Assembly (NCBI GenBank): GCA_013365325.1
Contig: JABVXV010000008.1
Location: forward strand, 682,001 to 746,000
Source: Dipetalonema caudispina
Lineage: Eukaryota; Nematoda; Chromadorea; Rhabditida; Onchocercidae
Reading direction: 5' to 3'
DNA: 64,000 nt
The stretch's first letter is position 1. Every line of letters starts with the position of its first letter. Both the position numbers and the translations under genes were made by a program. The notes beneath the pieces were generated by a model. The model searched no databases and was not told where the DNA came from. It saw only the letters and a list, made by a program, of their open reading frames with translations. This document shows positions 958 through 64,000 of this stretch, in pieces.

Positions 958-3900
958 TCAAGATATTATGAAAGAGTTCATTAAAATTTCGACTACATTG
1001 GTAAATAATAGGAAAAAATGAACCTCAATTGATATATGCCCTTGCAGTACATAGAAATAAATAGCCTTTGCCACCATTCCCTGTTTTCGAAAATCTGTTG
1101 CTAGCGCTGCACATGCACGCGATTCTGCAGTACGATCACCCAACTTCCTAGCAAGCTTCAAATATCGGGTATGATATTCTGCTGCTGAAATGCAATCAGT
1201 TAATCAATAACATGTACGCGTAAAGGAAAAATTAAATCTTAATTGCAAATAAACATAAAATTTTCTATTTCACTTACAAATGTATGACACCGGTCATCCT
1301 CAAATAAGGTCTATATTTGCCAGCACATCCTTTACAAGGAAATCTTTAAACAAACCTGTTACGTGATCGCCACATATAGCAGCACCATTACCAACATTGA
1401 AACAGCATTGTGCTTCTGTCACTTCATCATGTAATTCCGCTGCAAGTGACAGCGCCAAACTAAAAAATTTTTATTACTTTATTACTTACGGTAGCGACAC
1501 TAAAAGATCCCTCAAATATTTCATTATAACTTCCATGCAAATTGAAATAAGACAAATATCAAATGAATCTCAAACAATGCTCACGTTATAATCACTTCTA
1601 AATTACTACTAGCAGCATTAGACGGAAACAACTATAAATAGCAGAAATGAATATTTAAAAAAAAAAAACAACTACCGGTAATATTCTAAGGCTTTTGCCG
1701 TTTCTGAAAGGAAAATATGCGCATTCCCAAGATTTGTGTAGGCACGTCGCATTGCTGCACGATCACCATATTGCCGAGCAATGTCCAGTCGCTGAAATAC
1801 ATTCAGTTGAAGAATAACTAAATGTATGAGTTTCACCAGACAACTCTGGAAGTAACCGAGTAATTCGTAGATTTAATACATATGAAAATTACGAATAATG
1901 CGATAAAATAATGATTTCCTTCAGGTAAATGTTTAGTATCTATTTAGTTGTATTCTTGTTAAGTATTAGACTTACTGGAAGATACTGAAAGGGAGGACAT
2001 CTTTGAACACGGCCAAAATTTTTTGGCATGCAGATAACAATTATAAGTCATGATAAATACTAATATCCTCTTCATGAATACTAGCTTACTTTGTTATGAT
2101 AATAAACAGCAGTTGCATAATCACCCAGCATATAGTAACTGTTACCAATATTGCCATACGTTCTACCACATGCCACAAAATCCTTCATGTTTTCGACTAT
2201 ATGAAGATTTTGCCTGGAAAAAGATAAACTATTCGACGAACTAGTTTTTGCCTGCAGTACCACTGAAAAATAGGCGTGGATTTTAGATCTTTTCAAGAAT
2301 TAAGTTTTAATTTCTATGATAAATCAGATATAAAACAAAAAAAAAAAAACCTCCATTCTACAATTAGCTACATATTTAACGAAACTAGCAAGATGCAAGT
2401 GATAAAAGAAATGCACAAAGTGTGAAGTAAGTGAAAAGCCTATGGAAAATTAACAAAGAGAATTTCGCAGCATAGTCCACATATCAGTTCCAACCCAATA
2501 CGATAAATATTTACAAATAACAATTTATAGCAGCTTGAAGTTGCGAGGTTGCTGTCATATCGCTGGCTGTAAGAAGCCCAGATTTATCAAGAGGTTCCGA
2601 TGCATGGATTATTGTTTTCGCGCGACAATGATAAACAGATGCCACATTGTAAAGAGCTCCAGCCTCACATTCCTGTAATACAATTAAGCAAATCTTGAGG
2701 ACTTCACTTTATATTATTTTTCACTAAATGGAGTATATACGAGCAACCGAAAAAAACTCATTACGGCTCAATTTATCGAACTGATCAACGAATAAATAAA
2801 TGTATCAAATGCAATCTATAAAAAGTCAGAAAACCATGCGGCATACATATCATTTGCGCGTAAGACATTATCTAATTTGATTGCAATGTTTTACTGTACT
2901 TTTCTGACTTATGAAAATCCATATAATCATCTGCACAACCTCGCTTCATTATGATAACAAAATTGTCGATGCCAGCATCAAAACAAAACCTAACCTCGAC
3001 TAATTCAGCTACATATATCATAACTCGTAGAAATGCGACGAACTGCGTAAGACAACAACATAGGCTAGAAAAAATTCAACAAGATAATATGTGTTGGAAA
3101 AAATAAATAGTACCACACTTACTTTATCATTAAGTTCCTGTGCTAATCGTAAATGTGCGACCGCATGCTCATAAGCGCTATCAAAATCACCCAAAGCCTT
3201 GTAGGTATTTGCGATATTTCCATGAGCTTTTGCAAGCCCACAACGGTCATTGAGCAGTCTAAAACGGATAATAGCGAATCTCATGATGTAAAGATTTTGT
3301 ATGCATTATGAACAAAAATAAGAGACATGTTATCATGCTCTTACTTGGCTGTTTCCAAATCATGTCGATGATATTCGAGTGCTTTGTCGAAAATACGCAA
3401 CACAAAGTATGCATTTCCTAGTTGTGAATAGATTGCGGACAATGCTTCCAAACTGCGTCCTCCAAGGTTGATTTTTTTTTCCAGCGCCATTTCCAAGTAT
3501 TTGATCCCTATAAAGTAGATTCTTCTGTACATTTATTCATTCGACGCGCGCTAATTCCTATTAACTTTGATAAAATAACAAAGAAATCGTGAACACTCTC
3601 CAAAGCAATAATTATGCGCTTGGAAAATCTAATCACTGTGCAAAATTGTATTTGAATCCCTTAAGTGACAATTAAAACAGTAGGAGTAATAATACTGCAA
3701 CCAAATTCAGAAATTAGAAAGTTGGTGTCCTAGCACTTTAGTTCATGAAGTGTTTTTAATACAACAGGAACTTATAAATCAGCCTTCTGGAAAGGGCAAT
3801 GCAGGTCACAAGGACTGCTCAAACCGATAATGATATGATACAAGATGTAACAATAAAATCAACCAAATAATCCAATTTCAAACCTGCTTTCATGCTGTTT

Positions 3901-7500: not shown

Positions 7501-10474
7501 ATATCAAAGTAGCTAGAGCTGAAAATCCCAAGTTGATGGATGGCGAAATGTCTTTATTGGCTAAGGTCAGTTTTTACTAATGCGTCATTTTATCTTACAA
7601 TTGCGACAGATTTGCGTTCATAAAACTATTCCATAGTGATATATAGAGGGCAATATTGTTTAAATATAGTGGTGGTTTTTGTGCAGATGCTGCAGTGGAT
7701 TGGTACCGTACATCTCACATTATCACATTCTTTGTAAAACTGGCCTTAGTAAAATTGCTTCGTTGTTTGTATATGTATAAGCACTCGATCATTAATCATG
7801 CAGCGTGGAAATGCAAATATTTACAGTTTTTAGTTATTATTTCAGGGCATGCTCAAAGCATGTGGAAGGCCGCTTATTGATGCTGTTTTTGGCGGCACTC
7901 TTTTGCAGACAGTGAAATGTTCAGATTGTGGTCATCTTTCGAAGACTTATGAAGATTTCTTGGATCTATCTCTCCCACTTCCATCAACATCAACCAAAAC
8001 ATTATTTAATGGAACATACAAAATGCATAAATCTGCTTCACTGAGCTTGAGTAAATATCAGAAAAAAAAAGAAAAAACGAATGCGCGTAAAGGGGTTAGT
8101 AAAATCCATGTTAGGGGATTCATGGAAATTCTTTATCTTTACACGGTGTACACGATACATGAACCGTTCTTGCGCAGTTAATGCATTAATTCATAAAAAT
8201 TGTATATAACAACAGCACAGGCATTACTGAACCTGTTCAGTTCCTCTGTTATACCTCATTTTTTGTAAATTTAAGAAAGTACGTCGAAAATCTCATGAAA
8301 TCATTTCGCATAACGATGAAATTAATCATAGTGGGGAGCGGTCTCATCTTAACAATGATGTTAGCGATGAAGATATTCCCGATGATGATGATGTTGATGC
8401 AAAAAATGTGAACGGTAACATTTTCACTCTTAATCTTTTGCATCTGTTATGGTTTGGCATAATTTGTTTCAGCGGTATTTTGTTTGGATAAGAAATCAAA
8501 ATTGTCCTTTTCGTATGGTTTAAAAACTTTTGGAATGAATATCTATTCGACTTTAGAATATTACTGCATCCTTTGCTTTCCTGTGAGAAATAGGATTGAA
8601 TTTCGGGATGTTCCTTTTTTCTTTTTTCTTCATTTTTCAGTTCATATTATAATTCGATTTCCTGGGATGTTAAATATTTAGGTAATATCTGTGATGAAAT
8701 GAATAAATTGAATATGAATACTGAACTAGAAGATTGCCTACAGTTGTTGGATGATGGAAAAGCTGTAGAGGATGATCCGCGTTCATTAGCATCGTGTCTT
8801 CGAGCTTTTACAACAACAGAAGTTCTGTCGGCACCAAATACCTATGAGTGTGAAAAATGCTGTGTTCCTTACAACAAACAGGTTTCAAAATTTTGTTCTC
8901 AGTAGTTCTGTTCCCAAATTCGTTCTTGAAATTCGATCGTCGTGTTCTAAAGATGATAATTCCTTTTTATATACTTTCTGTCCTGTTAAGAGTATGTTAG
9001 AAATATTAGATTTGAGGTTTGAATTGCAAATCTTGTTATATAATGAGCAATGCGCTATTCTTCAGCTTCGAAATGGAATGAAGAAAAGGACAGTTGAAGC
9101 TGAGAAGCGTTACTTGATTTACGAGCCACCTCCAGTTTTAACATTACATCTGAAAAGGTTTGAACAGGTAATCTGGGAATCTTAGTTGAAATAATATAAC
9201 GAATTTCTTTTTTAAGCTATGCAAAATTGACAAAGAACAAACAGTTCTGAGCACTCAATGAATAGTTGTAGGGAGAAGATCCCATATTATGCAGTACAGA
9301 AAATCTTCTTTAGTTTTCATTTCTGTTTTCTTTTAAAAAGCGGAAAGCACTCATCCATCTGCATTTGAATCTTCCAGATTGAGTTTCTTTTCCACCATGC
9401 TTGTTCGTAAATTTGAATATATAATTTTTCCACTGCTTAAGGATTTTAGTTTAGAGTAATGATTCTCGTGCAGGGATTTAGCGATCGCAATTTTTGTCCA
9501 GAGATCCTTTCCCCACTTTTAATCACGCATTTATTTTGAGAGCACTTTCGTATGATTTTCAGACACATTCAATGAGTGGTCGTGTGATCACGCGCAAGGT
9601 TCCTGGGCAAATTTCTTTTCCAAAAATTCTTAATATTGCACCTTTTTGCACGCAAATAGCCAAGGTAATTGGTTTCATAAAAATTGCTGCATGTTGGATC
9701 TTTATTTTCTTCATTGTTTTTCGAAGCTGTAATATCTTTTTCTAGCCAGTAACTAGTAAACACTAGTTAACATTTCGTCGTTTTGGATATCCATATTTAT
9801 TTCGATTCTCATTTTATCTGTGTTGTGGAAGTATTATAATTATTAAATACGATTTTGTAGAGAATCGAGAAAGGATTAAAAAAGGTATATTATTCATTAT
9901 ATGGTGTTGTATCACATTCTGGAGATCTCTCATCGGGTCATTATGTCGCATTTATCAAGAATCGATATCCCTCATCGCAAACAGAAAAATTTTTCTACGA
10001 AGCTGCAAATCTTTCGCCACCAGATTCAGTCGTTACTTGTAGTGCTTCAGAACTGAAAGAGTTAGATCTTGTTTTTGTATCATGCTTACATAAAGTCCGT
10101 CTTGAAATTATAGTAACTATTTGGTTTTTAAGTGGATAACTCCATCTCTTTGGTAATTTAAAAAAAAAAAAGAAATTTTTATATCATCTCTTTGGGTGAG
10201 CTGATGCCTCATTATATAGTTTCGCTACTCATAAAAACATTTCAGTAATGATTAATTGCGAAATCTTGTTGATTGCGGCGGGTTAATCCCAACCATTTTT
10301 AGTGATTAGGTGCTTTCATTATTATTTTATATCAAATACTTCTGCAGGGTAATAGAGGGGCCATGCGATGATGGTGAATGGTACTATGCAAGCGACATGA
10401 GAATAAGCTCTGTGTCGGAATCGCGTGTGCTTGGTGCTGAAGCATATGTTCTTTTCTACGAACGAATCTTTTAA
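4551..10474 (+). CDS. Ubiquitin carboxyl-terminal hydrolase, USP16/USP45 type
   Basis: Fifteen exons give about 759 residues: 4551-4629, 4747-4907, 5044-5171, 5511-5775, 5969-6124, 6986-7134, 7388-7565, 7846-8094, 8276-8414, 8473-8517, 8682-8881, 9066-9167, 9563-9664, 9861-10060, 10348-10474. The N-terminus is a ZnF-UBP finger with C36, H38, C66, C69, C84, C87, C92, H101, H111, C124 and C127 as likely zinc ligands. The catalytic domain follows: Cys box [13 protein letters not shown] (C220), a [14 protein letters not shown] box, [10 protein letters not shown], His box SSGHYVAF (H678) and a terminal SDMRISS...YVLFYERIF block with D734. An acidic, low-complexity insert (about 456-520) interrupts the domain, as in USP16/45. 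Such enzymes cleave ubiquitin from substrates such as histone H2A. All catalytic residues are present, so it should be active. The 3' acceptor of exon 3 (TTGAAG) is unusual but is required by frame and homology. Confidence 0.92.
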
Positions 10475-16452: not shown

Positions 16453-19400
16453 ATGTTTGATTTCAGCATATTTCCCTTTGCTGAATTAAGGGTATGGATA
16501 TCGTTATTATACACCCTGTTGTTATATATATTCTTTGCATTCTTCTTTTATTTAATTTATCTGGGCCTTGTTTCACACTATTTCTATCAATTCCGTTCAA
16601 CATATCGAAGAGATTTATGGTGAGTTGCACTGGGCTTCAAACTTTAGGAGACTGTTAGCATATTTCAAATTACGTAAGCATTAATAAAAAATTACTTGGA
16701 TGGCGAGTTTTTGAATAATTAAATCTTTCATCCTTATTTATCAGAAAAACAAATGACATTTATGAGCGACAATTGAAAATGATACAAATGTACAAATGAT
16801 TGAGCCAATACTCTTAAATTAGCAGGAACACTCATTCCAGTAATTTGTTAAAGACAATGATTTTGCTAATAGTCGAAAATTTTGTAAATTTGTATTCTTT
16901 GCGTTTTATTGGAATTCTTGTGTTCATCAGCAAAAATCATTTCATCTTGTTTTTTATTTACCAAAAAATACGCTATCAACTACGAAGATTTGTTCATTTT
17001 GACACTATTTTATTCACTTCGTATGGCACATGGATTACTGTGCTATTGTGTTTTCGGTTGTAATGTGTCCTTTTTTTATCACTTGTTAGTATGAACCTAA
17101 ACTCGATTCAAAATCCATTTGTGTTTTCTTTTGTTTGCAGTGGTTTGATATTACTGATCCGATTAAGATGGAATATTTGGAAACATATGAAAAGTAATGA
17201 GCCGTTGCACCAAATATTTTTGTGGAATGTGAAAAATTATCGAGATAAAGAAGCATTGGTTGAAGTGGATACAGGGAGGAGGTTAACGTTCCATGAAATG
17301 AATAATCTGTGCAATCAGTATGCGAACTACTTCCAGGTTGATCATAAGTTACACATTTTTTTTTCCAGTTTTTTCAAAATATAATGCTATGCTGTCTTTA
17401 TTAAGTCAATAGACATTTTGAAATCTTTTAACGACGATTTGTTCTAATGCTGTTATTCAAAAGTGCAGAGAAATGAAATTAAACATTTTGCAGTCACAAG
17501 GTTACAAAAATGGTGATGTAATAGCATTGTTTCTTGAAAATTGTGCTGATTTTCCTGTCATTTGGCTTGGATTAAGTAAGATAGGTGTTATCACTTCGTG
17601 GGTGAATATTAATCTGAAGGCAGAACCACTTGCTCATTCAATCAGCATTTCGAAGTCAGTTTCTGTTATCACCAGCAGTACACTTTTGCCTGGTTAGTTT
17701 TCATTTATAGAAATTTTCTCAGAAATAAGGAATGTAGTAGGGTTTTTGGACTGTATCCAAGGAATCTTGATGCGAAGTTACGCATACAGGAAGTACCATT
17801 CCAGCTGTGGGATACTGGACTGCGGAATCATAGCGGGATTGAGCAACAAATGAGGAAGCCAAGGACAATTACCAAGTGAAGTTCGTAAAAAAATCCATTT
17901 GCTCATGAAATTTGTAAAAAAACTCAATCTAGAGGAGTTTTTTGCTACCATAGCTTTGAAAAAAGCAAAACTTTCCGCACGCAAGTCATGAATGACGGAC
18001 ATTCGGTTTGTGTCCAACAATGGTCTTTGTTATAAATAACTCGTTTATTCTGTTTTGAATTAGTTCCTTTCGTTATTTGACTGTTTTTACATGGGTGTAA
18101 AGATCTGATCATTGAAAGGAAAATTTTAAAAATGAAACGAAGAGAATATGTACTTAAAAATCTTCACTTTTTTCAGCACTGGAAGATATATTCTCATCGG
18201 GGAAATTGAAACAGATGAAAGTTTATGTCATAGATGATGATATTGGTAATAAAAAAAATGGCATCTTGTCACTGGCAACGAAAATCCCTTTAATTTCCTC
18301 CGAGGAACCAGTTGTTAATGAAAAACCAACATTCAGATGTCATTAATTTCTGTCCTATATCGTCACTTATTTTCTTTTTCCAACTCATAATGTTGTCTCT
18401 TCAGTATAATAATCGGGAAGCGCTAATTATAGAAAGAATGAATGCGATATCCTTTTGCTGATTAAGCATTCCCAGTAATTAATGCATAACTTTGAACGCC
18501 ATAAACCAAATTTTTCATAATAATTTGATATATAATTAGGGATTTAGGAAATATTTCGTTCGCATGTGATCTATTGGTTTTGTATTTCCCCATCATAATT
18601 CTTCCCCTTTATATTCAAATAATTTTTTTGTCATATTACCGTTTTTTCCATTATTAGTTTAACACTGACCTTCGAAATCCCCCTTAGTATATCACTTCAT
18701 TTCCATTTCCTGCTATTGCTATTTTCACCGATATTTCTTAATTTTTCAGCAGTGCTTTGTTATATCTTCACATCAGGAACAACAGGAAATCCTAAGCCAG
18801 CACTCATAAAGCATTATAGGTATGTTTTGAAAATTAGGTTATGCGAACAGACGAAATTTTTCGTGCAATTATCGTTTGCTACATTATAAGAGTTCATTTG
18901 GAATCGTGTGACATTAAGATACTTTGGAGAAACAATTTTAACATGTCTGAGAATATGGAGAGTATTGTAAGCTCATTACTAGCACTGTTATGCAAAACAA
19001 ATCGTTTAAAATAGTATAACGTAACTGGCATAAGTTCACCAATATGAGGTGACATATTATATTTATTTTCGAAATACTATAAAGTTTCTTTTATTTCATC
19101 ATAAATTTAGGTTTTATTGGATGACAATAGGTGTGGCCAACTCTTTTGGAATTTTTACAACAGACCGTTTGTATGTGATGATGCCAATTTATCATAGCGC
19201 TGGGGGGATCCTCGGTATAGGACAAACCGTGCTACGAGGTAGCACGTGTGTTATTAGGAAGAAATTCTCTGCGAGTAATTTTTGGAAAGACTGTGTTAAA
19301 CATAATTGTAATGTCAGTCAGTATATCGGTGAAATTTGCAGGTAGAGTTTTTCATGGTGGTTTCTTATTTCTGAATTTTTTCTGATTTAAAGTTTAACAC

Positions 19401-35551: not shown

Positions 35552-35558
35552 TTTACAG
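35552..35558 (+). promoter_or_regulatory. Candidate trans-splice acceptor abutting the start codon
   Basis: A TTTACAG acceptor ends directly against the ATG at 35559, leaving no room for a normal 5' UTR. In a nematode the simplest reading is spliced-leader addition, so that the leader itself becomes the 5' UTR. It also supports the choice of start codon for the peptide gene. Confidence 0.55.
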
Positions 35559-36306
35559 ATGAAGACGACCGGTGTATTATTGCTGTCGGCGCTATGCGTC
35601 GCTTTATCGTTAAGTGTTAGGGATGAGTGCATGGAACGCTACAAAATATGTTCGGTGAAAGATCGCTTCACAATGCAAAGAATATGTCGAAAAAGCGGCG
35701 GATTGTTGAAACATACACTGAAATATGCAGGAAAAGGTTTGCTTAAAAGTAAAGGAACTAAAACAATTGGTCATAAATTTCAAAGTTTGGAAATATCGTA
35801 CAGGATAGAGTAGCACAAATAATATTGTGCAAAATAGTTATTGGATATTTAGGGAAATAGAGAAATTTATGTGATAATTATTTGTTTTTTATTTTCTCCA
35901 TAATCATTTTTTAAATTCTTTTACTATTTTCAAAAAGTTTAACTCGTTAATATGTATTTTTTAGATCTAAGTTGAATAATTAATTATCCATGGAAAGTGA
36001 GAAATCAAAACTGCAAGGAATCCCCGAGTTGAGGATAAATAGGGTTTTCGACCAACTTTGAAAACAAGAAATTTATGTTCGTCAAAATTCTAGGATCATC
36101 CCGTTACGTGATGCAAAGTTTTTGATATTACTGTCAGTCAGTTACTTTTAAACAGATAACAGGTGCAGTATGTGATCATTGTTAGTTTCTTTTCAGAGAT
36201 AATCTCTGATTGCTGCCAGCCAAGCGGTTGCACCAGACAGTACTTATGTGACTTCTGTGGAAATTCGTGTTGTCAAATTGCGGTTGACATGATGATTATG
36301 GATTGA
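35559..36306 (+). CDS. Small secreted cysteine-rich peptide, possibly a divergent insulin-like peptide
   Basis: Two exons, 35559-35748 and 36197-36306, give 99 residues with matching phase 1. Residues 1-19 are a clear signal peptide (MKTTGVLLLSALCVALSLS). Exon 1 then has C24, C31 and C43; C31 and C43 are separated by 11 residues, the spacing of an insulin B chain. A basic linker follows, with KK at the exon junction. Exon 2 carries C69 C70, C75, C81, C84, C88 and C89; CC-x4-C-x8-C (69-84) resembles an insulin A chain, which is normally CC-x3-C-x8-C. The phase-1 intron falls in the putative C-peptide, as in insulin genes. Ten mature cysteines allow five disulfides, more than canonical insulin. 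An alternative phase-1 donor earlier in exon 1 (GTTTGC) would shorten the linker. An unrelated cysteine-rich secreted peptide remains possible. Confidence 0.5.
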
Positions 36307-41356: not shown

Positions 41357-44300
41357 CTACGTCTTTTCCTCCAGAAAGGAAGCACTGAATAAACATTTGA
41401 ATTTATAGCCTTTACTATATGCGATCAGGATGATAATTACCGTAGTACTGGAATTGATTATTGTGGTATCGATTGCGATATATGTAAATATTGCTTCCTG
41501 TAACACAGAAAGCATCACCTTTACTGCTAGAGCTATACCGAATGAATTCATCAACCAGTCAATACTTGTACTTAGTTTGTCGAGGCAACCTTGTTGATGC
41601 ATACTAAAATATTATTAGAGCAATGAGACCTCTCGGTACAATTTTAGTCCTTAAGATTTAAAATACGAAAAATTACATACTTTGGTTGTCTCCAAATTGT
41701 TACCTGAAGGGGGATATTACCTTCGAAAACTAAATCTGCAGAATTCTTGTCCAACATCAACGCATCTGTTAGAGCAAGATTACAACACTAGCTACCAATT
41801 AGTCATGCAATAAGACCTCCGGTTTTTCTGCCAGCTGTTTCGACTATCTAGTATTTTCTTAAATTCTGAGACACCTAACCACTTTTCCTCAATTTTACTG
41901 AACTACTCCTATTTAGTTAACTTGACAAAGCACCGATATCAGATTCCTTTACATAAGTTACAAAAATATTTGAATATAATCAAGACGTCATATAAATATA
42001 TGTGATTAAATGTTTGACTTACAAAATAACACGATAGTTTGCTTGATGTAATAATCCCAAAAAGTTTCATAATGAAGAAATAAATTGTAAAATTTTTGCC
42101 TCATAATCACTTATAAAACTTATTACCTATTCAACGCAATCTATTTCAAGTTTAAGATCATAATTTTACTAAGAAAAGAATTTCCCACTAAGTGATTATG
42201 GAGCTATCAGTGCAAATGAGCAAACCTTTCCTTGGAACAATATTTTTTGACATTCAAGCAACAAGACAAAGGAGCTGAATTTATTTTTTCGTCATAATTT
42301 TGTAGTTTCCAAATATTTTGTGCTTGATCATCTAGCATTACTTTTGACACATCTTCAATCTGCAATCTACAAATATAAGATGAAAAGGTCATATAGATTC
42401 AAAATAGTTTCTTTAACTTGTTTTTTACAATCATTTCTTACAGGATCATAATAGTGAATTGTTCTATTCCGCAGCCATTCCGTGTAATTTCCAGCAAAAC
42501 CGCAACATTGCATGGTTCTTTGAACATCATCTACCGTATGCATAAACTTTTGTGGATCATTTTTCAACAATGTTCCTGCACCAGCAATCAAAGTTGATGA
42601 CACTTCGGATGAATTTAAACCTATTGCTACTGTAATTATAATAATCGTTTAATATTCAAGCCGTAATATATCAGTTCAGTGTCATCAATGCTGCAATTAT
42701 GCAAACTAATGCATAGTTCCCATTATTTGTGTTCATGGAAATACAGTTATAATAATAATTCGCTAATTTACATAATTGCTATATCGGAATTTCCAATTCC
42801 TTATTCCTTTCCAGTGCAATATTAATGATAGTCCTGCTGTATCATCAGTGATTATCAGAAAGATAACAGAAAGATCAACTTTGGTTACAAAATGTGAATA
42901 ATTGCGCCCATAATAAAGGAAGGCTTAATGCAGGAGAAGACATTGCAAATGGAATGATTTGCAATTTAACATCTCCAATTTGAACATGACAGAAAGAGCA
43001 TAGGTTAATTAATGCATGATGAAAAGGTCAACATGGAGCTGGTAAATATTGCCATGATATCAAGTATGAAGATAATAACAGAATATGATGAACAATCAAG
43101 CGGCTAAATATTCGGAACCTAATCAGAACGACGTGTAGTGAGATGGAACAGGTGTAGTAGACTGTGGTGGAAAATGATGAATTAAATAATGTGATACAGC
43201 AGTTATGTGGGTCAATGAAAGATTAAAAACAGTAAAATTCCTTGTAATGAACGATGGTCCTTCATGTTATCAATTCCAAGATGATTGTTTGAATAGAACG
43301 ACACGAAGTTTCCAATCAACTATTCGAATCAATAATTTTGTACTTAATTGTTTTTTTCTAACTTAATTTAAGGAATTAAAAATTTAATAATAAAATAATG
43401 TATGTTTCTATTCATCCCATAATTAACTCACTGAGAAATAAATAAAATAACATAACAAGGAATAATAAAGCGAAGTCCATTGCTATCGATATCCCATACA
43501 AAGTATATTCCTTCTTCATAAAGGTTAATAACGATACAACCTGTACTGCAAGTAGAATTCCTTCCATTCCAAATAATACGCATGGAAAGAAACCAAGACT
43601 TTTTATTAACTGAAATTTATGCAATTCTTGAGGTATTCATTAAATTTTAGAGATTATAAGAAGTGTTTGTGGATAGATATTGCTATGCACTATGCTAATT
43701 AATTAGATAACTAATAAATGAAAAAATGAAATTATAAATCGACTATCGATAGGTTCCTACTATTACTGGTACCGATAAGTATTGTAAATATTTTTCAAGC
43801 TCGTTTAGCGCATAGAAATTTATATAAACCATACAATTTCGGCACTGATTGTAGGCTTTGTAATAGCATAAATTCGACGTGTAGGTTGTACATATTTGAC
43901 GACAAAGTTCAACGATATAAGTATAACTGCTATACATCTAAATGACATTTTCTAATGCAAAGATTTGGATAATTTTTGATAGGTTGCATTTCGTTTCACA
44001 ATAAAAGCAATCTTTGCCTAATATGCAATACTGAAAGAAGCGTTGAACTAAATATTTAGTATTGTTGGAGTTTCCCACCGAACTGCAACGTAAAGTTATG
44101 CAATGTACAACGTGGAACGTATATGTTCACGTGAGCAGATACTCACTTAGATTCCCAATAGTACAGTGATCGGTGTCATCTGAATATCTTTTATCTTAAA
44201 AACCGACCTGTACAAAATTAATAAGAACTGTCAATGCGTTTTGTAACATATTCAGTGAGTTCGATTATCAAGCATTTTAAAAACAAACATTAATATACGA

Positions 44301-45373: not shown

Positions 45374-48300
45374 CTATTGACGACCTGCCCATTTATTCAG
45401 GTCATCTTGATCAATGAATGGATCAAATGAGACTTCGAATTCTGTAAGACATGAAATCATGTCATTATTAATACACATGAAACATGTTTCCCCATCGTAC
45501 AGTGGTCGAAACTCACTTCACAATTACCTTTTTTAAACTTCATTTTTGGATAATCTGTAAACTGACCGCCATATTTAAAGGAAGGAATGCTTTGATGTGT
45601 TCTTGATCCTGGCAGATGATTCATTTCTGATGAAAGAGGTTTCATCTTTTTATTTGAATTTAAAGCTGAAATGAAATTTTTATAACAGAAAAGAAATCAA
45701 TGTAAAATCTAAGAGTTCGAGAATGCCATAAAGTTTGATTGATAATACTTTCAGAAATGATCACTGATATATACATATAAGCCATTTGCTACCGAACCAG
45801 CTGTTACAGAAGGGTGCATTACTTAGAAGTAGAAACTTTGCTCGTTAAAAAGTAAGGGGAGCCAAAGGGAATCAACCTTTCGAATGTGCTATGCAAGTAA
45901 AATGAATTAGATTCTGAAAATCGAATTCCAGCGATGCACACAAATTTTGCATATATTTCCTTACAGATATGTAAATAAAAGGAATTTAAGGCTTGGAACT
46001 ATGTGTGCGTACACGTAAATAATGTTTGTCGATAGGAGGAAAGTAGGCAAAACCCAGAACACAACCATAGATGCGTAAAGGAGCGCCTTGTTTATCCAAA
46101 TAACGGGTTTTGTCATAATCTTGATCTTAGCAATATCGAAAATTCAAATAACTTTGAAAAATTATGTATGCAAAAAGTCGAAAACTGAAGTGCAACAAAT
46201 AGACAACAAAAAGAAGTTGGAAAATAATTGGAATCCAGAAAAAGTTCAAATTTATTTGCATACTTGCAACATTGCAGTAATTCCACGTATGCAACATATT
46301 AATGACATTCACCGAACATGTTTGATAATTTCGTTTATTGGGTGATATTTTCAAAATTTATTTCTTATGACATTGAAAAGTGATTGGAAAATATCACTGA
46401 CAAATAGTTGTTGAAGTGAGAAGTAACTATAAATAATGGTCATGTTACTATAAATAAGGTCATCTACTACAAACAACATCATACATTACGATATTGGTTT
46501 ACTATACGCCGAATAGTTGAGATACAACTGCATTTGAATTATAGACTCTTCTTTATGACTTCCACGGTTCGACCATCCTAATAGAACATAGTCATAATTT
46601 CCAAATTTAAAACTTTTCAAGGCTTCTATTTTAAAAACAAATTACAAAACTTCTTTTAAAGCAAATAAACAGTAAAAACTTAAATATTTCGCAACAATTA
46701 TTTTATAAGATTTTTGAAACATGCAAAATCTTTTACTTCCGTATTTAATTGATGATTAGAATTAATGAAATATCTTACAGCGATATGATCATCCCAGTTA
46801 TTGAAGATTTTCTTGAATTCAGCCGTTTCTTTGCCTTGTAGCACCTTTACAATTTGCGCTCCAGCCGGGCGTGGAAGTGTATCACCTTGCAAATATTTCT
46901 ATAAAAAAAAGACTTCATTTGTTAGAAAAAATTTATTTTAGAATGCAATCATTATTATGATCGTGCAGGTAATTTGTTGAATCGATATGTGAGAAGCGGT
47001 CGTAAATCGACTAAAGGTATAACAGATCAAATCTGTTTCCACCGCCTGAAGCAATTTAGGCGGAGAAGAAAGGGATACATTTCGTAAATTAATGATTCTT
47101 AACGTTACTTCAAAGACAGTATAAATCGTAGGAAAGGATTAAACAACTGAAATCGAACATTGGCAACATCATTAGCGAGCTTCTTTTCCTGTTCATTAGC
47201 GCCGATACCGATCCATACATAAATGTCCTTCAGAGCATCCAAAATCATCACATCATCACCATCCAAATCCTAAAAAATCCTTATTTACTTCATTTTTTCT
47301 TTAAGTTAGAGACTACAGTTCTGGCTAGGGAGTACGAAGCACCATAAATTAATATAATCCAAAATGTACCAATGTGAAGAATAGACTTTCATATACTTTG
47401 AAAAACTGATTTGTGCTATAATGAGCCTTCCTTTTTTTTTGAAACATTTAATTATTTAAAAACAGAGTTGATATTTGGTCATAACCTCCCAGTCTTACTT
47501 GAAAAAATTTCTCAAATCTAATAGATTAGTTTTCTCCTACTTTTCAAAGAATTTTGCAACACAATGCTATTCCTCACTTTTATGAATTCATTATTTCTTG
47601 TCTCATTTGTTTCTAATTGACTTACTTCTTGTGTATAGTTACAAATTTCTTCAATAGTTAGTCTACCATTTTGATCACTGCACTGATACAGTTTAGGAAT
47701 GAACTGTGGTATCTTTTTAGGACCTTCCCAAGAACTGGCCCATTGGGTAAATGCTGTCGGTTCAGCACCATCCAAAACTCGTACCACTTGCGTATTTTTC
47801 GATCTTCCCTAAAAAACATGCATGCATTATAAAAGCGAAAATACTCTGACATGGACATTGAAGGAGTAGTGAACTACAAATGATTCCATCGAAACAACTT
47901 TCAGTAACAGGTAAAATCGCTTTTGTAAAGCGTTTATAGTATTATCACTGATAAATTGCAATGATATGCTTTTATATGGCCTTTTTAGAAATTAATTTTT
48001 GACTTTATTTTGGTGAATAATCAATTTATAGATCCAACCTGCATTTCGATATATTTGATCGCATATTCCATAGCTTTTTTTCTTTCATCTGTTGAACAAT
48101 TTTTTCCGATCCAAACGTATATTCCACCGTTGCACGCATCCAATATGAAAGCATCCTTCAAATTCAACCTGCCCATTAGTATCGAATTTAGGAGAAGTTG
48201 GCTTTTCGAAAGTTCAATGCATTTACAACTTACACTTGCAAATGGTATAACCAAATGGACTTCTGTAATTTAGAATGGATGTAAATTAGTCAAGAAAAGA

Positions 48301-62200: not shown

Positions 62201-63562
62201 TCTTTTTTATATATTTAATATTTATTGCATTTCGTCTTATGATAAAACTCTTTACCTTCAATTAAATTATATGACATATCTTGAGGTACTCTTATAAACT
62301 GGGAAGAGAATAATCAAGATTTTTCCCTTCCTTTAGGTCATAAACAAAGTGTGCTACTATGCGTATTGTGATTTATATTACGGTGAAAAAGTAGCTAATT
62401 GGTCGGATTTAAAAGTTGATAAAGTATATTTCAATCCAACTGCGGAAAAGGAAAAGGGAGAAGGGCTTTTCATAAATCAAGGAGATATGCTATTTTCCTG
62501 TCAATTCCTATCAATTGAAGATTTGGACTTAAAGTCCCAGTTCCCATTCAAATTCCCAAGCTTATTTTTTATTTTTTAATAATTCTTATCAATATTAGTA
62601 GCCGTGTAATTGCTATTTTTATCGTTATTAATAGTAATGATATCGTAGTCATTTTTGTTGTTCAAACTATCACTGTTGTTGCTCTGACTGTCACCAATAT
62701 AATTGTTTTGGCCAGGTATATGTATGCAAAATAAAGCAATAATACTGTAAGCGTGCATTTCTACGTGAAATGCTTAAATTATATACAGTTATACGCAGTG
62801 TATAGGCTCATCGTGATATTATTAGTGCTTCGTTGTATCCAACATGTAGTGTATCTTTATGATATTTAAAGTGTTTATTGTCTATTTGTAGTAATATTTC
62901 TGTTATTATGTAATTTATAAGGTATTTCCTGTAAATTTAGATCTTAACTGGGTTGCATCGATATAGAAAGGATAGGCTTAGTCTCTTGTTCCAAAGCTCA
63001 ACTGATAGTTACGATGTTAAGAAGAATAACGTAAGACATATAAGCAAAAGGCAATAGGTTGTTGGCTTTACAATGACTTCATCATGTTTAAAAAAGTGAA
63101 AAATTATATTCGAATTTTCATCTTTTCTAAATTCTTGCCAACATTTGGTAATGAGGCCTTAAATTTCAAGTGAATTTCGATCAGAGAACTGTTTAGGCAT
63201 GAGAGTCTAAGAAAATAGAGAAGAAAGCAAATATGTGGATATGGGTATCATTTTTATTTCCTCACTTTTAATAGATATCATATAAAGCTGTGTGGGGTTT
63301 TTGCGTCCTCCCCTTTTTGTAAGAAGGCGATTGAGACCAGAGACTATGGCTAGCAGCTTGCTAATAAGAAAAGCATTTTAGAGATCGCTGTTATTTTGTA
63401 ATTGTATCATTTATTCTTTTTGACCGCCGAGGAATTTTTATTTCAGTCAGCTTTTCTTTTTGAGAAGAAACATACGGTAAAAGGAAGAAATAGAAGATTG
63501 TTCTTGCTTGATTGCTTTTGTATATTCTATTTCGAGTGCTGGAATTCCTCGATTCCTGGTGA

Positions 63563-63621
63563 CTATTATTATTTTGTTATTATCATTACCATTATTGTTA
63601 TTATTATTATCATTACTGTTC

Positions 63622-63653
<32 letters not shown>

Positions 63654-63670
63654 GTTATTATTATGGTTAT
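63563..63670. repeat. ATT-type trinucleotide microsatellite
   Basis: About 100 bases of ATT units with scattered ATC, GTT and CTT variants, including one uninterrupted run of roughly eleven units. The array keeps frames open on both strands (poly-Ile on plus, poly-Asn on minus), which explains the false ORFs there. Confidence 0.9.
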
Positions 63671-63780
63671 TGATTCTGATATGTTGATGTGAGCGATCTT
63701 TCTCGGCCAACATCAAAATATTAGGCTGCTTTTCATTACTGAATTTCATATTAATGTTAGGCGCAGAATAACAGACAAAT

Positions 63781-63794
63781 ACACACACACACAC
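63781..63794. repeat. AC dinucleotide run
   Basis: Seven AC units. Simple repeat without coding support. Confidence 0.85.
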
Positions 63795-64000
63795 ATATCA
63801 TAAGAATAGACGAACAGGTAAATGTATACATTTAGAGAGAGAGGAGTCGTGGAACAGAGATGAAGGTGTGGAATTTGTGCTGTTTTGTCAAAATTCTGGA
63901 ATTGTCAAGAGTGTTGTTGAAGTTATATGCAGAAATTTATATAAGTCCGGTCAGAGCTTGTGCTCATCGCCGTTATGATCGTCTTTTGTAGAGAATGTAA

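What the first reader, a model, noticed from the sequence alone, without database searches (positions are those of the whole stretch)
35559..36306. Possible divergent insulin-superfamily peptide with ten mature cysteines
Seen: signal peptide, C-x11-C in exon 1, CC-x4-C-x8-C in exon 2, a basic linker with KK, phase-1 intron in the linker, 99 residues, acceptor abutting ATG. Known: insulin-like precursors have B chain C-x11-C, A chain CC-x3-C-x8-C, and a phase-1 intron in the C-peptide; nematodes carry many divergent copies. Inference: an insulin-like peptide with an extra N-terminal B-chain cysteine, a one-residue A-chain insertion and a CC near the end. This layout differs from the usual extra-disulfide nematode forms I know.
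Basis: partly seen in the sequence, partly recalled or inferred. Interest (0 to 1): 0.75.

Follow-up and report, generated by a model that had tools for sequence, protein, structure and literature searches.

The report
Divergent insulin-like hormone of filarial worms
A filarial worm gene encodes a small secreted peptide, kept nearly unchanged in related worms, that looks like a strongly altered insulin-type hormone with ten instead of six cysteines; its fold, receptor and expression are still unproven.

Summary
The two exons, leader, phase-1 intron and ten mature cysteines are real. Only this locus matched in its own genome. Six named spirurid nematodes have full-length orthologues; all ten cysteines are invariant in 7 of 7 sequences.

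One detail is wrong. Four of six orthologue models imply a donor 12 bases upstream, so exon 1 ends at 35736, the product is 95 residues, and the KK site vanishes. The linker is as conserved as the chains, which suggests an uncleaved peptide, though two of seven sequences have Arg-Lys at the linker's end.

Insulin-superfamily membership is probable, not proven. For: A-chain spacing and core residues; B-A intron phase; an insulin-like chain topping the profile search of the PDB (E 0.15, not significant); a profile match to five insulin/relaxin sequences that none of 400 cysteine-preserving shuffles reached. Against: no Pfam hit, atypical B chain, no excess similarity to this genome's own insulin-like peptides, no insulin in the single-sequence PDB search, uninformative fold predictions.

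Ten-cysteine nematode insulin-like peptides are in print (Strongyloides "type delta"), and the Dirofilaria protein is already labelled putative insulin-like peptide: a conserved variant of a known kind.

The parts
35552..35558 (+). TTTACAG abutting the ATG: candidate acceptor for spliced-leader trans-splicing or a 5'UTR intron (inferred)
   Evidence: read directly; no transcript data
35559..35736 (+). exon 1 as implied by orthologue proteins: leader, extra Cys C24, B-chain-like C31-x11-C43, conserved linker; ends in phase 1 (AAA G|GTTTGC)
   Evidence: 0.85 mean pairwise identity in the B part over 21 pairs of 7 sequences
   Evidence: predicted phase-1 introns between B and A exons in three ordinary insulin-like genes of this genome
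36197..36306 (+). exon 2: A-chain-like (E)IISDCC-x4-C-x5-C-x2-C-x3-CC, short hydrophobic tail, stop
   Evidence: 0.90 mean pairwise identity in the A part over 21 pairs of 7 sequences

Best explanation
A gene found in all six named spirurid species that turned up, single-copy here as far as the search shows, for a secreted, divergent insulin/relaxin-superfamily hormone that probably stays single-chain. After leader removal the peptide of about 75 residues would fold by the three insulin disulfides (B7-A7 = C31-C66, B19-A20 = C43-C80, A6-A11 = C65-C71), with C24, C77, C84 and C85 forming two more. It is then released as a developmental or metabolic ligand, most likely for the worm's own DAF-2-type receptor. 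Shown: gene structure in DNA, conservation, cysteine positions. Inferred: splicing, fold, disulfide pairing, lack of cleavage, receptor and function.
For: A-chain spacing with insulin core residues (positions recalled): A2 = I61, A3 = I62, A16 = L76, A19 = F79, all invariant in 7 of 7, and GC[TS] as in relaxin GCT. Phase-1 intron between B and A exons, as in the predicted splicing of 3 of 3 ordinary insulin-like genes examined in this genome. Family profile against all PDB sequences: an insulin-like chain (7u23) ranks first of 7 listed, both chains in register and with the same CC-x4-C spacing, E 0.15. The exon 2 frame (with 12 intron-encoded residues) puts relaxin A chain second of 5, E 0.49. 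hhalign to five sequences (insulin, IGF1, relaxin-2, INSL3, bombyxin) scores 23.9 against 10.5 +/- 2.0 and 10.9 +/- 2.5 for cysteine-preserving column shuffles; 0 of 200 reach it in each of two runs. Low-confidence models of the Loa and A. viteae orthologues put helices where insulin has its three (33-46, 60-65, 73-79; and 34-46, 58-66, 74-80 in a protein one residue longer). Linker identity 0.89, as high as the chains, against 0.50-0.58 in the C761-type peptide. NCBI names the D. immitis protein putative insulin-like peptide and UniRef names the Gongylonema one IlGF domain-containing.
Against: No Pfam family at E <= 10 in 7 of 7 sequences; NCBIfam gives one irrelevant match (E 0.07) in 1 of 7; three ordinary insulin-like peptides of the same genome do pass PF00049 or PF03488 cut-offs. 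A single-sequence PDB search listed 6 chains at E <= 10, none insulin. B-chain Gly after both cysteines is absent and B11 is Asp35. hhalign against this genome's own insulin-like peptides is no better than shuffles (90 of 200; C761 type 81 of 200 and C366 type 200 of 200), nor against single human insulin, IGF1 and bombyxin (40, 58 and 129 of 200). AlphaFold2 pLDDT 54.8 and 53.5; Foldseek found 0 PDB matches for one model and one meaningless match for the other. The exon 2 frame ranks a zinc-finger protein first. Against the single-chain part: A. viteae and D. immitis have Arg-Lys at the linker's end (ARK|E), and every sequence has Arg-Lys or Arg-Arg right after C43. No transcript data.
Confidence: 0.62

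Rival explanations
1. A different, lineage-specific cysteine-rich secreted peptide of unrelated fold whose cysteine spacing resembles insulin by chance or convergence.
For: No family hit; no insulin in the single-sequence PDB search; atypical B chain; failed fold searches; no excess similarity to this genome's own insulin-like peptides; C-x11-C alone is common by chance.
Against: A-chain motif rare by chance; core residues, intron phase and position, and the in-register profile match agree with insulin.
Confidence: 0.25
2. A conventional two-chain insulin-like peptide with the linker cut out, either from the reader's donor 35749 (99 residues, KK) or at the Arg-Lys sites of the 95-residue form.
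For: AAAA|GTAAAG is a plausible donor in the same phase. Two of seven sequences (A. viteae, D. immitis) have ARK just before the A part, and all have RK or RR right after C43.
Against: 0 of 6 full-length orthologue models show the 99-residue join, 4 of 6 the upstream one. W. bancrofti read-through P0008 has Asn where the window codon is AGT, so that donor is not kept there (inferred from protein). The linker's end is AGK in 5 of 7 and the linker is highly conserved.
Confidence: 0.1
3. A decayed or never expressed gene.
For: No transcript evidence could be obtained.
Against: Open frames, a GT-AG intron, all ten cysteines kept in 7 of 7 sequences; leader less conserved (0.60) than the B, linker and A parts (0.85-0.90), as under protein-level selection.
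Confidence: 0.03

Closest known systems
Strongyloides stercoralis type delta insulin-like peptides Ss-ILP-2 and Ss-ILP-5 (PMC3493385)
   Same: ten cysteines; parasitic nematode; outside types alpha, beta and gamma
   Different: the paper says S. stercoralis ILPs lack the intron between B and A peptides, which is present here; their cysteine spacing is in a figure that could not be seen
Nematode beta-type insulin-like peptides (PF03488), e.g. this genome's C366 and C642 genes
   Same: leader, C-x11-C, CC-x3-C-x8-C core, phase-1 intron
   Different: those two have an extra Cys three residues after B19 and a second Cys beside A20; here the extras are before B7, inside A helix 2 and 4-5 residues after A20
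Filarial C761-type insulin-like peptide (P0013, P0014, L001)
   Same: in P0013 and P0014 a Cys seven residues before B7 in the context NECM-x5-C, like DECM-x5-C here; Ile at A2 and GCT in the A chain; extra C-terminal cysteines
   Different: that early Cys may lie in its leader; A spacing CC-x3-C-x8-CC-x4-C-x3-C; faster-evolving linker; recognised by Pfam; hhalign no better than shuffles
Relaxin/INSL3 branch and single-chain viral insulin-like peptide 7u23
   Same: GCT and LxxFC in the relaxin A chain; CC-x4-C in 7u23
   Different: three disulfides and B-chain Gly residues, relaxin cleaved into two chains (recalled)
Sea-anemone ILP IlO1_i1 (PMC8698791)
   Same: extra cysteines at the N-terminal side of the B chain
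   Different: there a putative pair within a B-chain extension; here one extra B cysteine plus three in the A part

Membership tests
Insulin superfamily | secreted precursor in the order leader, B, linker, A | tested here: met
   (leader read by eye; no signal-peptide predictor available)
Insulin superfamily | B-chain cysteines C-x10-12-C | tested here: met
   C31-x11-C43 invariant in 7 of 7; weak evidence alone
Insulin superfamily | A-chain CC-x3/4-C-x8-C | tested here: met
   C65 C66-x4-C71-x8-C80 invariant in 7 of 7, with an extra Cys inside x8
Insulin superfamily | A-chain core residues A2, A3, A16, A19 | tested here: met
   I61, I62, L76, F79 invariant in 7 of 7; insulin positions recalled
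Insulin superfamily | B-chain core: Gly after both Cys, hydrophobic B11, B15, B18 | tested here: not met
   Ser32 and Arg44 replace Gly and B11 is Asp35; B15 (Met39, Leu in Gongylonema) and B18 (Ile42) are hydrophobic. The C642 peptide of this genome also lacks the first Gly but passes PF03488, so Gly is typical rather than essential
Insulin superfamily | phase-1 intron between B and A | tested here: met
   same phase in three ordinary genes
Insulin superfamily | profile match over a curated cut-off (Pfam) | tested here: not met
   0 of 7 sequences at E <= 10, nor the 99-residue form; control peptides pass
Insulin superfamily | three-helix insulin fold | tested here: inconclusive
   helix layout fits but pLDDT 54.8 and 53.5 and no PDB fold match of value
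Insulin superfamily | two B-A disulfides and one within A | not testable with these tools
   needs chemistry or a structure
Type delta nematode ILP | ten cysteines | tested here: met
   against PMC3493385
Type delta nematode ILP | same cysteine spacing as Ss-ILP-2 and Ss-ILP-5 | not testable with these tools
   sequences are in a figure not held
Beta-type nematode ILP (PF03488) | extra Cys soon after B19 and next to A20 | tested here: not met
   pattern as in C366 and C642

The most novel reading that the evidence does not exclude
A separate structural class of insulin-superfamily hormone confined to spirurid (filaria-related) nematodes: single-chain, five disulfides, cysteine framework C-x6-C-x11-C-x21-CC-x4-C-x5-C-x2-C-x3-CC, with an extra disulfide tying the B-chain N-terminus to A helix 2 and a conserved uncleaved linker, different from alpha, beta, gamma and possibly from Strongyloides type delta.
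Probability: 0.3. Interest if true: 0.58.

Novelty: new variant of a known kind. Interest (0 to 1): 0.42.

Why it matters
Filarial worms cause elephantiasis, river blindness, loiasis and heartworm, and dauer-type pathways, insulin signalling included, have been proposed to control development of infective larvae in parasitic nematodes (PMC3493385, PMC8555053, passages). In the listings and passages seen here there was no catalogue of filarial insulin ligands. A highly conserved candidate ligand shared by the filarial species that turned up, and missed by standard profiles, makes the role of insulin signalling in these worms more directly testable and warns that profile-based counts of their insulin-like peptides may be too low.

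Tried and rejected
PF00049 over the own genome gave nothing, but that search sees one exon at a time and its controls gave nothing either, so it shows nothing. PF03488 then gave five places; four belong to three ordinary insulin-like genes, and the fifth (C173, L003, below the cut-off) was not pursued. A profile search of 5.8 billion proteins listed the same ten proteins as the first (only the 7993 candidates sharing most words were scored). Two AlphaFold2 runs (of the Loa and A. viteae orthologues, not of the window's own product) and three fold searches were uninformative. An inhibitor-cystine-knot reading was considered from memory and dropped because of the 21-residue linker and predicted helices; it was not tested. 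Literature: nine accepted searches; no paper on this gene and no filarial insulin-ligand survey was seen in the listings, of which (20 of 38; 12 of 24; 12 of 469; 10 of 12) were cut short, in an open-licence library. Papers: PMC3493385 (section 18 whole, other passages), PMC8698791 (section 19 whole, other passages), PMC4924289, PMC4092141 and PMC8555053 (passages); others as listings.

Full report
Observation. The ATG at 35559 follows TTTACAG directly. Exon 1 encodes a leader and C24, C31, C43; exon 2 (36197-36306) encodes C65 C66, C71, C77, C80, C84 C85 in 95-residue numbering. Ten cysteines lie outside the leader. The A-type motif CC-x3/4-C-x8-C appears once in six frames of the window, against a mean of 0.07 in 30 first-order Markov sequences; C-x11-C is common (67 against 52), so the B part is not evidence by itself.

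Gene model. A search of about 5.8 billion proteins returned ten proteins at E <= 10 out of 14 candidates: six full-length orthologues (Loa loa, Onchocerca flexuosa, Wuchereria bancrofti, Acanthocheilonema viteae, Dirofilaria immitis, Gongylonema pulchrum), three proteins that read from exon 1 into the intron, and one D. immitis model labelled Phospholipid scramblase that appears to carry exon 1 followed by exon 2 in another frame. Four of the six full-length models join ...KYA[G/R]K to EIISDCC, and two (W. bancrofti, Gongylonema) keep extra residues at the junction. Their proteins were seen, not their DNA. In the window the matching join uses the donor AAAG|GTTTGC at 35736/35737, phase 1, giving 95 residues. 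A profile search with seven sequences listed the same ten proteins. In the own genome a search at E <= 10 matched the two exons of this locus and nothing else (only best candidates are scored there).

Conservation. All ten mature cysteines are invariant in 7 of 7 sequences. Mean pairwise identity over 21 pairs: leader 0.60, B part 0.85, linker 0.89, A part 0.90, tail 0.76 (the extra residues of the W. bancrofti and Gongylonema models were left out). For comparison, the C761-type insulin-like peptide in three filarial sequences has B part 0.87-0.96, A part 0.93-0.97 and linker 0.50-0.58. A linker that evolves as slowly as the chains suggests a peptide that stays in one piece. Against this, A. 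viteae and D. immitis have Arg-Lys at the linker's end just before the A part (the other five have Gly-Lys), and all seven have Arg-Lys or Arg-Arg directly after C43, so cleavage is not excluded.

Insulin membership, for. The A part carries Ile, Ile, Leu and Phe at A2, A3, A16 and A19. A profile of the family against all PDB sequences ranks a viral insulin-like peptide first of seven listed, E 0.15, with both chains in register and the same CC-x4-C spacing. The exon 2 frame, with 12 intron-encoded residues, ranks relaxin A chain second of five, E 0.49. Neither is significant. The similarity therefore goes beyond the cysteine skeleton, although hhalign's own probability is only 45%. Three ordinary insulin-like genes of this genome (C761, C642, C366) each have a predicted phase-1 intron between B and A exons, as this gene does; the splice sites were picked by eye.

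Insulin membership, against. Seven of seven sequences have no Pfam match at E <= 10, while all three ordinary peptides pass the PF00049 or PF03488 cut-off. NCBIfam gives one irrelevant match in 1 of 7. The single 99-residue sequence against the PDB lists six chains, none insulin. The B part lacks both glycines and has Asp at B11. Compared with this genome's own insulin-like peptides the hhalign score is no better than shuffles (90 of 200; 81 of 200 for the C761 type and 200 of 200 for the C366 type). Pooling the own peptides with the five gives 2 of 200, and the C761 type with the five gives 0 of 200. Single templates: relaxin-2 8, INSL3 5, human insulin 40, IGF1 58, bombyxin 129 of 200. AlphaFold2 gave pLDDT 54.8 for the Loa orthologue with six sequences and 53.5 for the A. 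viteae one with eight. Both place helices roughly where insulin has its three, but Foldseek found no PDB match for the first and one meaningless match for the second; the aligner's second look at the first compared one chain without a match.

Mechanism. Most likely a secreted hormone of the insulin/relaxin kind with the three standard bridges and two extra ones from C24, C77, C84 and C85. In insulin numbering C24 is at B0 and C77 at A17; I recall these regions as close in folded insulin, so a B0-A17 bridge with the second bridge near the C-terminus is one possible arrangement. The genome has two places with several receptor L-domain matches each (C274, C111), as expected for an insulin-type and an EGF-type receptor, though these were not told apart. 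Receptor, expression and function are untested.

Novelty. Stoltzfus and colleagues described seven Strongyloides insulin-like peptides, two with ten cysteines named type delta, and say the Strongyloides peptides lack the B-A intron (PMC3493385); they listed CC-4X-C-8X-CC among search motifs (passage). A sea-anemone peptide has extra cysteines at the B-chain N-terminus (PMC8698791). The D. immitis orthologue is already named putative insulin-like peptide and the Gongylonema one IlGF domain-containing. What is added here is a corrected gene model, the conservation across seven sequences, evidence on the linker, and a framework that fits neither alpha, beta nor gamma. Whether it equals type delta could not be tested.

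Noticed in passing
L001, L002, L004 and L005 (own genome contigs C761, C642, C366): Three ordinary insulin-like genes of this genome, each with a predicted phase-1 intron between B and A exons; their joined products pass the PF00049 or PF03488 cut-off.
   Followed up: yes
L001 and proteins P0013, P0014: The C761-type peptide also has a Cys seven residues before the first B-chain Cys, as NECM in two species and NGCL here, and cysteines beyond A21; the early Cys may belong to its leader.
   Followed up: partly
proteins P0001, P0010, P0016, P0019: Database labels that look wrong for short insulin-like proteins or their pieces: SCR-like, Phospholipid scramblase, SCP domain, Gnk2-homologous.
   Followed up: no
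window 48024-48269 (-), 42370-42648 (-), 3021-3305 (-), 17064-17381 (+), 7834-8178 (+): Likely exons of ordinary neighbours among ten frames scanned: gelsolin repeat (over the Pfam cut-off); tetraspanin, TPR, AMP-binding and ubiquitin hydrolase matches below their cut-offs. The insulin family searches listed no place inside the window.
   Followed up: partly
window 63450-63797 (-): Open frame with long asparagine runs, seen in the frame list.
   Followed up: no
own genome C274:53879-56856 and C111:409164-412699: Two places with several receptor L-domain matches each, candidates for insulin-type and EGF-type receptors; some matches run through stop codons, probably introns.
   Followed up: no
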